Assembly: GCA_030049955.1 (NCBI GenBank)
Contig: JASIJX010000021.1
Coordinates: forward strand, 1 to 21,121
DNA: 21,121 nucleotides
Source: Acidobacteriaceae bacterium
Lineage (GTDB): Bacteria > Acidobacteriota > Terriglobia > Terriglobales > Acidobacteriaceae
Direction of reading: 5' to 3'
Part shown: positions 12,158 through 12,235 of the stretch, in pieces
Layout: every line of letters begins with the position of its first letter
Numbering within the stretch: position 1 is the stretch's first letter
The notes under the pieces: generated by a model
What the model was told of the DNA's origin: nothing
What the model saw: only the letters and a program-made list of their open reading frames with translations
Database searches by the model: none
Program-made: the position numbers and the translations under genes

Positions 12158-12235
12158 ATGCGATTCTGTATGCTAGCCATGGCCTGTTGTTGCGCATGTT
12201 GTATGCGCCCCAACGGCTGTGAGCTTTGTGTCTGA
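12158..12235 (+). CDS. Polycysteine leader peptide, 25 aa, probably leaderless
   Basis: A 25-codon ORF from ATG to TGA encodes eight Cys (residues 4, 10, 11, 12, 14, 15, 21 and 24), with the core MACCCACCMRPNGCELC. It ends 112 bases before cysD, the first gene of cysteine biosynthesis here. The ATG lies 7 bases after the -10 and has no usable Shine-Dalgarno (only AAAAGAG directly abutting it), so translation is probably leaderless. Leaderless polycysteine ORFs that act as cysteine-responsive attenuators are described in mycobacteria; this one has the same design in a different phylum. The peptide itself is probably not functional: the signal is ribosome stalling at Cys codons 12185-12202. The codon run lies inside a hairpin (12182-12217), and downstream sequence can form exclusive antiterminator and terminator structures. 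Confidence 0.75.
   Translation: MRFCMLAMACCCACCMRPNGCELCV
12182..12217 (+). promoter_or_regulatory. Leader hairpin covering the Cys codon run (1:2 structure)
   Basis: The inner stem GCGCAT (12192-12197) pairs with ATGCGC (12203-12208). It extends outward through GTTG (12186-12189) with CAAC (12211-12214) and GCC (12182-12184) with GGC (12215-12217), with a small TT/CC internal loop and a bulged T. It overlaps exactly the Cys codons, so a stalled ribosome would melt it and free 12214 onward. Confidence 0.6.

What the first reader, a model, noticed from the sequence alone, without database searches (positions are those of the whole stretch)
12158..12235. Leaderless polycysteine leader ORF in front of cysDNH
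A 25-codon ORF with eight cysteines, including Cys-Cys-Cys-Ala-Cys-Cys, sits directly upstream of the sulfate-assimilation operon. Its ATG lies 7 bases after a -10 element, so the mRNA is probably leaderless. Cysteine is rare in proteins, so this density ahead of cys genes is very unlikely to be chance. Leaderless polycysteine attenuators are known from mycobacteria; a case outside Actinobacteria, probably in Acidobacteriota, would show the strategy is wider or arose twice.
Basis: partly seen in the sequence, partly recalled or inferred. Interest (0 to 1): 0.93.

Follow-up and report, generated by a model that had tools for sequence, protein, structure and literature searches.

The report
Leaderless cysteine attenuator in Acidobacteriota
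In Acidobacteriota, the genes that turn sulfate into cysteine are often preceded by a tiny reading frame packed with cysteine codons and a predicted transcription terminator, which together likely work as a switch: a ribosome that stalls for lack of cysteine would let transcription run on into the genes.

Summary
A 25-codon ORF (12158-12235, MRFCMLAMACCCACCMRPNGCELCV) with eight Cys codons lies between a TTGACA/GATTCT promoter-like pair and cysD-cysN-cysH-tauE, its ATG 7 bases after the -10. It is not chance: of 123 Acidobacteriota cysD upstream regions, 58 hold a short ORF with at least 4 Cys in 10 residues, against about 1 in shuffles. The ORF's 3' end (12214-12226) can pair instead with the terminator's 5' arm (12271-12283), and the free leader folds so that this strand is hidden. 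This is the layout of classical ribosome-mediated attenuation. It recurs in two classes with native-specific pairing (first class -17.9 kcal/mol native, -14.4 swapped), though the window's own pairing is not significant alone. Leader Cys codons are mostly UGU, the minor codon of the window's genes. It likely senses Cys-tRNA like trp/his attenuators. It differs from mycobacterial polycysteine leaders, for which no conserved terminator was found. Leaderless initiation is inferred from promoter spacing. 30 of 73 leaders lack a strong terminator. No expression data exist here.

The parts
12122..12127 (+). -35 hexamer TTGACA
   Evidence: sequence; same hexamer at similar distance from the leader start in relatives
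12145..12150 (+). -10 hexamer GATTCT (weak; A2 and T6 present), spacer 17
   Evidence: not reached by the consensus scan
12157..12158 (+). predicted transcription start (0-1 nt before the ATG)
   Evidence: inferred from -10 position; not measured
12158..12235 (+). leader ORF, 25 codons, 8 Cys (7 UGU, 1 UGC)
12185..12202 (+). Cys run CCC-A-CC, the likely stall site
12161..12243 (+). 1:2 (protector) fold that hides the antiterminator strand when no ribosome is on the leader
   Evidence: MFE of free RNA; a helix in the like position covaries in the second class
12214..12226 (+). antiterminator strand CGGC-U-GUG-A-GCUU at the 3' end of the ORF
   Evidence: MFE of the stalled, pre-decision RNA; relatives
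12271..12283 (+). terminator 5' arm AAGC-C-CAC-C-GCCG, also the partner of the antiterminator strand (11 bp)
   Evidence: relatives
12273..12311 (+). predicted intrinsic terminator: hairpin (-20.0 kcal/mol over 12271-12300) and TTTTCTGTTTTC
12348..13289 (+). cysD, sulfate adenylyltransferase small subunit
   Evidence: TIGR02039
13289..14926 (+). cysN, sulfate adenylyltransferase large subunit
   Evidence: TIGR02034
14923..15633 (+). cysH, (phospho)adenylylsulfate reductase
   Evidence: NF002537; PF01507
15640..16452 (+). TauE/SafE-family permease, last gene of the run
   Evidence: PF01925

Best explanation
Window 12122-12311 is a predicted cysteine-responsive transcription attenuator of the cysD-cysN-cysH-tauE operon, read by a ribosome that likely starts on a leaderless ATG at 12158. 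Inferred course: with enough Cys-tRNA the ribosome runs to the stop codon (12233), covers the antiterminator strand 12214-12226, the hairpin 12273-12300 with its U tract forms, and RNA polymerase stops before cysD. With too little Cys-tRNA the ribosome stalls on UGU/UGC codons 12185-12202; its leading edge (about 12209) leaves 12214-12226 free, which pairs with 12271-12283 before the terminator's 3' arm is made, and transcription continues. With no ribosome the leader folds on itself (12161-12243), hides the antiterminator strand and the terminator forms. Shown: the ORF, its Cys run, the terminator-like sequence, the alternative pairings as computed, and their recurrence in relatives. Inferred: transcript start, ribosome stalling, the response to cysteine and the co-transcriptional choice.
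For: Leader: 73 of 123 deduplicated cysD upstream regions hold a short ORF with at least 3 Cys in 10 residues, 58 at least 4, 34 at least 5; dinucleotide shuffles average 11.2, 1.05 and 0.1; the opposite strand gives 18, 7 and 5. Terminator: 43 of the 73 leaders are followed by a hairpin of -12.5 kcal/mol or better with a T tract before cysD; at the laxer -9, 47 of 73 against 7, 3 and 8 of 73 in three mononucleotide shuffles, and 10 of 50 regions below the leader threshold. Antiterminator: in 41 first-class loci the last 11 sense codons pair with their own terminator 5' arm at -17.9 kcal/mol on average, with others' arms -14.4 (permutation p 5e-5), shuffled leader ends -13.7 sd 0.47. In 16 second-class loci (20-nt segments picked by eye) native -23.5, swapped -21.8 (p 0.005), shuffled -14.0 sd 0.79. 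The second class shows the leader in 19 of 30 loci, and its 1:2 helix covaries: 4 cells changed on both sides (3 of 500 shuffles reach that), score 0.254 (5 of 500); the number of further pair types is not unusual (94 of 500). Window states: stalled RNA up to the loop folds into the 11-bp antiterminator (-21.7); with the full hairpin, RNA after a ribosome at the stop folds the terminator; free RNA hides the strand. Over 58 loci the 5' arm is paired upstream 0.77 at the best stall position and 0.25 at the stop (medians). Promoter spacing: predicted 5' UTR of -1 to 3 nt in 23 of 73 leaders against a mean of 0.74 (max 3 in 100 rounds) with shuffled upstreams; a strong -35 with some -10 anywhere: 34 against a mean of 21.4. 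SD pairing of leader starts averages -0.9 kcal/mol against -6.0 for the best cysD start in the same 29 loci. Codons: window leader 7 UGU to 1 UGC against 4 to 28 in nine window genes, p 1.3e-4; the 73 leaders 335 to 117. The same device heads TauE-first sulfur operons in L222, L223 and L254.
Against: No RNA, ribosome or reporter data. The window's own leader-arm duplex is not significant alone (p 0.136), and 24 of 43 loci reach p<0.05. In the window the 5' arm is still paired upstream 0.55 with the ribosome at the stop (0.84 stalled, 0.46 free, 0.72 in shuffled stalled RNA), so its states are less cleanly parted than in most loci. Over 58 loci shuffled stalled RNA pairs the arm almost as often as native (0.71 against 0.77, though p 1e-5). 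At equilibrium with the full hairpin the window's terminator wins even when stalled (P 0.78 against 0.97 at the stop); it falls below 0.5 in 19 of 58 loci, so the choice must mostly be kinetic. 50 of 123 loci fail the leader threshold, and 30 of 73 leaders have no strong terminator. The -10 is weak.
Confidence: 0.85

Rival explanations
1. Translational attenuation as reported for mycobacteria: the leader ribosome controls an RNA structure that covers the cysD ribosome-binding site; the terminator-like hairpin is only part of it.
For: A subset of relatives keeps the leader without a U-tract terminator, and by eye 7 of 11 of one such group (L002, L105, L108, L115, L116, L119, L120; L002/L105 and L115/L120 are near-copies) carry a small hairpin around the cysD SD (ACUC..GAGU). 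Leaderless Cys sORFs in M. smegmatis are reported to act on translation of downstream genes (PMC9031893, passages).
Against: In the window and 42 other loci a strong hairpin with a T tract precedes cysD, and the leader end pairs with the terminator's 5' arm. Pairing of the window's leader end with the cysD SD was not tested separately.
Confidence: 0.08
2. The Cys-rich peptide itself is the sensor or product (metal, redox or copper sensing, or a small functional protein).
For: Many CC and CxC motifs; Cys-rich upstream ORFs that answer to copper are recalled from other bacteria (no call made).
Against: Across the clades mainly the Cys codons are kept; other residues and length drift, although some subgroups share a peptide (QLRCCC). 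In window and L081 similar antiterminator RNA (9 of 12 bases) is read in different frames (GGC TGT GAG against G GCC GTG TGC). Downstream genes are sulfate assimilation. Synonymous choice is biased to UGU, which a peptide sensor would not need.
Confidence: 0.03
3. Attenuator with the same mechanism, but the leader is not leaderless: transcription starts upstream and the ORF is translated from a short 5' UTR or an inner ATG (12170 or 12179). This overlaps with the best explanation.
For: The -10 is weak; in several relatives the predicted UTR is 5-11 nt; ATGs at 12170 and 12179 are in frame.
Against: TTGAC(A/C)-17-hexamer at 36-38 nt before the start recurs across diverged leaders; shuffled upstreams rarely give such spacing; little SD in front of the start.
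Confidence: 0.12
4. Chance ORF and ordinary upstream terminator of the glyoxalase-family gene.
For: The upstream gene ends at 12084 on the same strand, and short ORFs are common.
Against: Conservation in 58 of 123 loci against about 1 expected; the terminator lies next to cysD, 188 nt beyond the upstream gene, and in relatives pairs preferentially with its own leader end.
Confidence: 0.01

Closest known systems
Polycysteine leaderless sORF attenuators of mycobacteria (Canestrari et al. 2020, not held; cited in PMC9094748 and PMC9031893; candidate leaders in PMC1262725)
   Same: Leaderless or near-leaderless short ORF with a Cys run ahead of cys operons; cysteine supply as the signal.
   Different: For Mycobacterium no conserved terminator hairpins were found (PMC1262725) and the reported effect is on translation of downstream genes (PMC9031893); here an intrinsic terminator with a paired antiterminator is the likely output, in another phylum. 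Sequence relatedness to the mycobacterial leaders was not tested.
uORFC-8-2 motif ahead of cysS, Rhodobacterales (PMC8632094, passages)
   Same: uORF with tandem Cys codons, stems and a terminal U run; proposed ribosome-mediated transcription attenuation by Cys-tRNA.
   Different: Controls cysteinyl-tRNA synthetase, two conserved Cys codons dominated by UGC, alphaproteobacterial; here sulfate assimilation, longer Cys runs mostly UGU, Acidobacteriota. No leaderless claim was seen in the passages read.
Leaderless trpL1, leuL2 and ilvL leaders of Streptomyces lividans (PMC8079986, passages)
   Same: Leaderless leader peptide followed by an apparent Rho-independent terminator.
   Different: Sense Trp, Leu or branched-chain amino acids; Actinobacteria.
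E. coli trp and his attenuators (classical 1-2-3-4 design, recalled; theory in PMC1183508, passages)
   Same: Regulatory codons, protector, antiterminator and terminator hairpins.
   Different: Those leader peptides start behind an SD (recalled), and they sense Trp or His.

Membership tests
Classical ribosome-mediated transcription attenuator | Short ORF rich in codons of the regulated pathway's amino acid, ahead of that pathway's genes | tested here: met
Classical ribosome-mediated transcription attenuator | Intrinsic terminator between leader ORF and first gene | tested here: met
   by sequence; 43 of 73 leaders by the strict cut-off
Classical ribosome-mediated transcription attenuator | Antiterminator pairing exclusive with the terminator, built from the leader ORF end | tested here: met
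   met for the group and as the fold of the stalled window RNA; the window alone is not significant, p 0.136
Classical ribosome-mediated transcription attenuator | Protector (1:2) hairpin that hides the antiterminator when untranslated | tested here: met
   window MFE; covariation of the like helix in the second class; not tested for covariation in the window's own class
Classical ribosome-mediated transcription attenuator | Premature termination that falls when the amino acid is scarce | not testable with these tools
   needs Term-seq or reporters
Mycobacterial polycysteine leaderless sORF attenuator | Polycysteine short ORF ahead of cysteine-metabolism operon | tested here: met
Mycobacterial polycysteine leaderless sORF attenuator | Leaderless transcript | tested here: inconclusive
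   promoter spacing predicts a 0-1 nt UTR; 5' end not measured
Mycobacterial polycysteine leaderless sORF attenuator | No intrinsic terminator; control at translation of the next gene | tested here: not met
   terminator-like hairpin with U tract present
uORFC-8-2 (Rhodobacterales cysS) | Placed ahead of cysS | tested here: not met
   cysD follows; sequence or structure match to that motif was not tested (whether Rfam holds it was not checked; Rfam gave no hit)

The most novel reading that the evidence does not exclude
Acidobacteriota run a phylum-wide family of leaderless cysteine attenuators, probably arisen independently of the actinobacterial one: the same fast-drifting poly-UGU sensor ORF is wired to an intrinsic terminator in at least two classes and, in one branch, rewired to a terminator-free (SD-masking) output, so that one sensor has switched between transcriptional and translational control.
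Probability: 0.5. Interest if true: 0.7.

Novelty: new variant of a known kind. Interest (0 to 1): 0.6.

Why it matters
A passage read here says that almost none of the attenuators predicted in phyla such as Acidobacteria had associated functions (PMC2965389), and Rfam 15 gave no hit at gathering score in the window or in three relatives. The element gives sulfate assimilation in this phylum a concrete, testable cysteine switch. It couples probable leaderless initiation with terminator-type attenuation for cysteine, and the natural split between terminator and terminator-free versions makes the evolution of attenuator outputs directly testable. The strong UGU bias is a second testable point about what makes regulatory codons sensitive.

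Tried and rejected
Consensus promoter scan: no site, because the -10 matches only 3 of 6; the -35/-10 spacing was therefore tested across relatives. Rfam at gathering threshold on the window and on L208, L081, L162: nothing. NCBIfam on the leader peptide up to E 1: nothing. A poly-Cys DNA pattern over 61 genomes of the class matched in 58; many hits look by eye like TGC-type repeats, and they were not all examined. Of 39 loci scanned, 13 short-ORF candidates were printed and 5 looked at: L222, L223 and L254 are leaders ahead of TauE-first operons, L242 is a cysD leader, L236 is not a leader. Equilibrium folding of the complete leader does not show antitermination for the window, so the kinetic form is proposed. 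RBS sequestration in the terminator-free group was looked at by MFE in 16 loci without a consistent picture; only a small SD hairpin in 7 of 11 of one subgroup was seen by eye. Seven literature searches for cysteine attenuators, Acidobacteria/Acidobacteriota with leader peptides or attenuation, leaderless leader peptides and sulfate assimilation showed no report of this element in the rows listed; five of these lists were capped, and most subscription papers are outside that library. Papers were seen as passages only.

Selection and misses: the 110 first-class loci are the 30 best plus 80 taken down the score-ordered listing of a class in which 236 of 399 genomes matched (a few listed places were skipped), so they lean towards near relatives. 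The 30 second-class loci are the best 30 from 70 matching genomes of 193. L089 and L109 were dropped as duplicates; L193 and L214 repeat L020 and L006, which are also among the 123 (L193 was left out of the 16, and both were left out as repeats). The 66 other-phylum loci (0 with at least 4 Cys in 10, 3 with at least 3) are the nearest CysD hits, not a fair sample of bacteria. The leader threshold misses likely weaker cases such as L099, L106 and L178 (sequences), and L012 was probably scored in the wrong one of two overlapping frames. The 20-nt second-class segments were picked by eye. The 335 and 117 Cys codons include some from N-terminal extensions that are probably not translated.

Full report
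What is there. Window 12158-12235 encodes MRFCMLAMACCCACCMRPNGCELCV. It follows TTGACA (12122-12127), a 17-nt spacer, GATTCT (12145-12150) and 7 nt. After its stop come 37 nt, then a hairpin (12273-12300; -20.0 kcal/mol over 12271-12300) with TTTTCTGTTTTC, then cysD at 12348. The run reads cysD, cysN, cysH and a TauE/SafE permease with overlapping or nearly touching ends. The leader RNA 12158-12350 folds better than most dinucleotide shuffles (z -2.26, 3 of 200 as good).

Where it comes from. No genome is held for the window itself.

Is it more than chance. I compared 123 deduplicated cysD upstream regions: the window, 14 loci whose titles name acidobacterial organisms, and 110 from the class of G001, less two duplicates. 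73 have a short ORF with at least 3 Cys in 10 residues, 58 at least 4, 34 at least 5. Dinucleotide shuffles average 11.2, 1.05 and 0.1; the opposite strand gives 18, 7 and 5. In a second class (of G007/G008; two of its loci are also among the 123), 19 of 30 loci have at least 3 and 16 at least 4; among 66 CysD loci of other phyla 3 have at least 3 and none has at least 4. The peptides drift: MRACCQCRNCCPAHPVAVCCRVR, MSLYSMMVACCACCCAPRRSMG, MPIATSPSDTCCCCCCRCCRQTGRTPALMN. Across clades mainly the Cys runs are shared.

The terminator. 43 of the 73 leaders have a hairpin of -12.5 kcal/mol or better followed by T before cysD; at -9 the count is 47, against 7, 3 and 8 after mononucleotide shuffling, and 10 of 50 regions without a leader. 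The arms are clade-specific: CCCACCGCC..GGTGGG, CCCGCCCTCGG..GGCGGG, CCCGCG..CGCGGG in the first class, AGCCCGGGAC..GTCCCGGGCT in the second.

The antiterminator. The last 11 sense codons of the leader pair with the terminator's own 5' arm. Across 41 first-class loci the native pairing averages -17.9 kcal/mol, swapped partners -14.4 (permutation p 5e-5), shuffled leader ends -13.7 sd 0.47; the 33 nt just upstream give only -9.1. Taken one by one, 24 of 43 loci beat their own dinucleotide shuffles at p<0.05; the window does not (p 0.136). Across 16 second-class loci, with segments picked by eye, the native value is -23.5, swapped -21.8 (p 0.005), shuffled -14.0 sd 0.79. In the window and in its nearest relative L081 the antiterminator strand is alike (9 of 12 bases) but is read in different frames, which speaks for RNA pairing rather than peptide as the conserved thing. 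A protector helix directly after the Cys run covaries in the second class (4 cells changed on both sides, 3 of 500 shuffles; further pair types 94 of 500).

Geometry in the window. A ribosome with codon 14 in its A site would reach to about 12209, just short of the antiterminator strand (12214). The RNA beyond it, transcribed to the terminator loop, has the 11-bp antiterminator as its minimum-energy fold. A ribosome at the stop codon would cover about 12215-12245, thus the strand. Footprint sizes are recalled, not measured. The free leader folds into 12161-12243 and the terminator. Over 58 loci the 5' arm is paired upstream 0.77 at the best stall position, 0.25 at the stop, 0.62 without ribosome (medians). 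The window itself gives 0.84, 0.55 and 0.46: other upstream bases can pair weakly with the arm there. Against the model, shuffled stalled RNA gives a median of 0.71, and with the full hairpin present equilibrium favours the terminator in 39 of 58 loci even when stalled, the window among them. The model therefore needs the antiterminator to form first, as co-transcriptional folding would allow.

Leaderless start. Where a -35 with at least 5 of 6 matches exists, the start codon lies 0-3 nt after the predicted +1 in 22 of 31 leaders. In a like count with shuffles 23 of 73 leaders fall within -1 to 3 nt, against a mean of 0.74 and a maximum of 3; a strong -35 with a -10 anywhere is less telling (34 against a mean of 21.4). 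SD pairing before the leader start is weak (mean -0.9; 2 of 29 at -5 or better) compared with cysD (mean -6.0; 20 of 29; here the best of several candidate starts was taken, which favours cysD). In the second class 11 of 19 leaders have a promoter match, 10 of them starting 2-6 nt after +1; 8 have none. In 2011 leaderless genes were estimated at 13.3% on average in three Acidobacteria genomes (PMC3160421, passages). All of this is inference from sequence.

Codon choice. The window leader has 7 UGU and 1 UGC; nine window genes have 4 and 28 (p 1.3e-4). The 73 leaders have 335 and 117, second-class leaders 61 and 37, eight cysD genes 3 and 33. Theory holds that high sensitivity needs a particular synonymous codon (PMC1183508, passages); whether UGU is that codon here is untested, and a need for unstructured RNA could also explain it.

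Variants. 30 of the 73 leaders lack a strong terminator (one search lists them; some, such as L133 and L154, may be chance ORFs). Two groups among them are consistent: one with a QLRCCC-type leader and, in 7 of 11 by eye, a small hairpin over the cysD SD; another whose leaders end in GACGGGTGT, complementary to GCACCC(G) downstream, without a U tract. They suggest a change of output. In L222, L223 and L254 the leader and terminator stand before a TauE permease gene instead of cysD, with a PAPS-reductase-domain gene further on in L222 and L223.

Relation to known systems. It would work like a classical attenuator and, as a group, meets the sequence-level criteria tested. It resembles mycobacterial polycysteine leaders in sensor and probable leaderlessness but not in likely output; Canestrari et al. 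was not held and is known here only through other papers. A Cys-uORF with terminator was proposed for cysS in Rhodobacterales (PMC8632094), and leaderless leaders with terminators were described in Streptomyces for other amino acids (PMC8079986). Hence: a new variant of a known kind.

Noticed in passing
L002, L105, L108, L115, L116, L119, L120 upstream of cysD: Leader ORF kept, no strong U-tract terminator, but a small hairpin ACUC..GAGU over the cysD SD: possible translational version of the same switch.
   Followed up: partly
L106, L111, L112, L114, L122, L125 upstream of cysD: Another terminator-free group whose leaders end in GACGGGTGT, complementary to GCACCC(G) downstream; the shared Asp-Gly-Cys ending looks RNA-driven.
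   Followed up: no
L222, L223, L254: Poly-Cys leader plus CCCACC..GGTGGGTTTTTT terminator ahead of a TauE-first operon, so the device stands before sulfur operons of different gene order.
   Followed up: partly
leaders in both classes: Strong UGU preference in leader Cys codons while the genes counted use UGC.
   Followed up: partly
window 12293-12328: GCGUGGGUUUU (12293-12303) can also pair with AAAAUCUACGC (12318-12328) in the full-length fold; meaning unknown.
   Followed up: no
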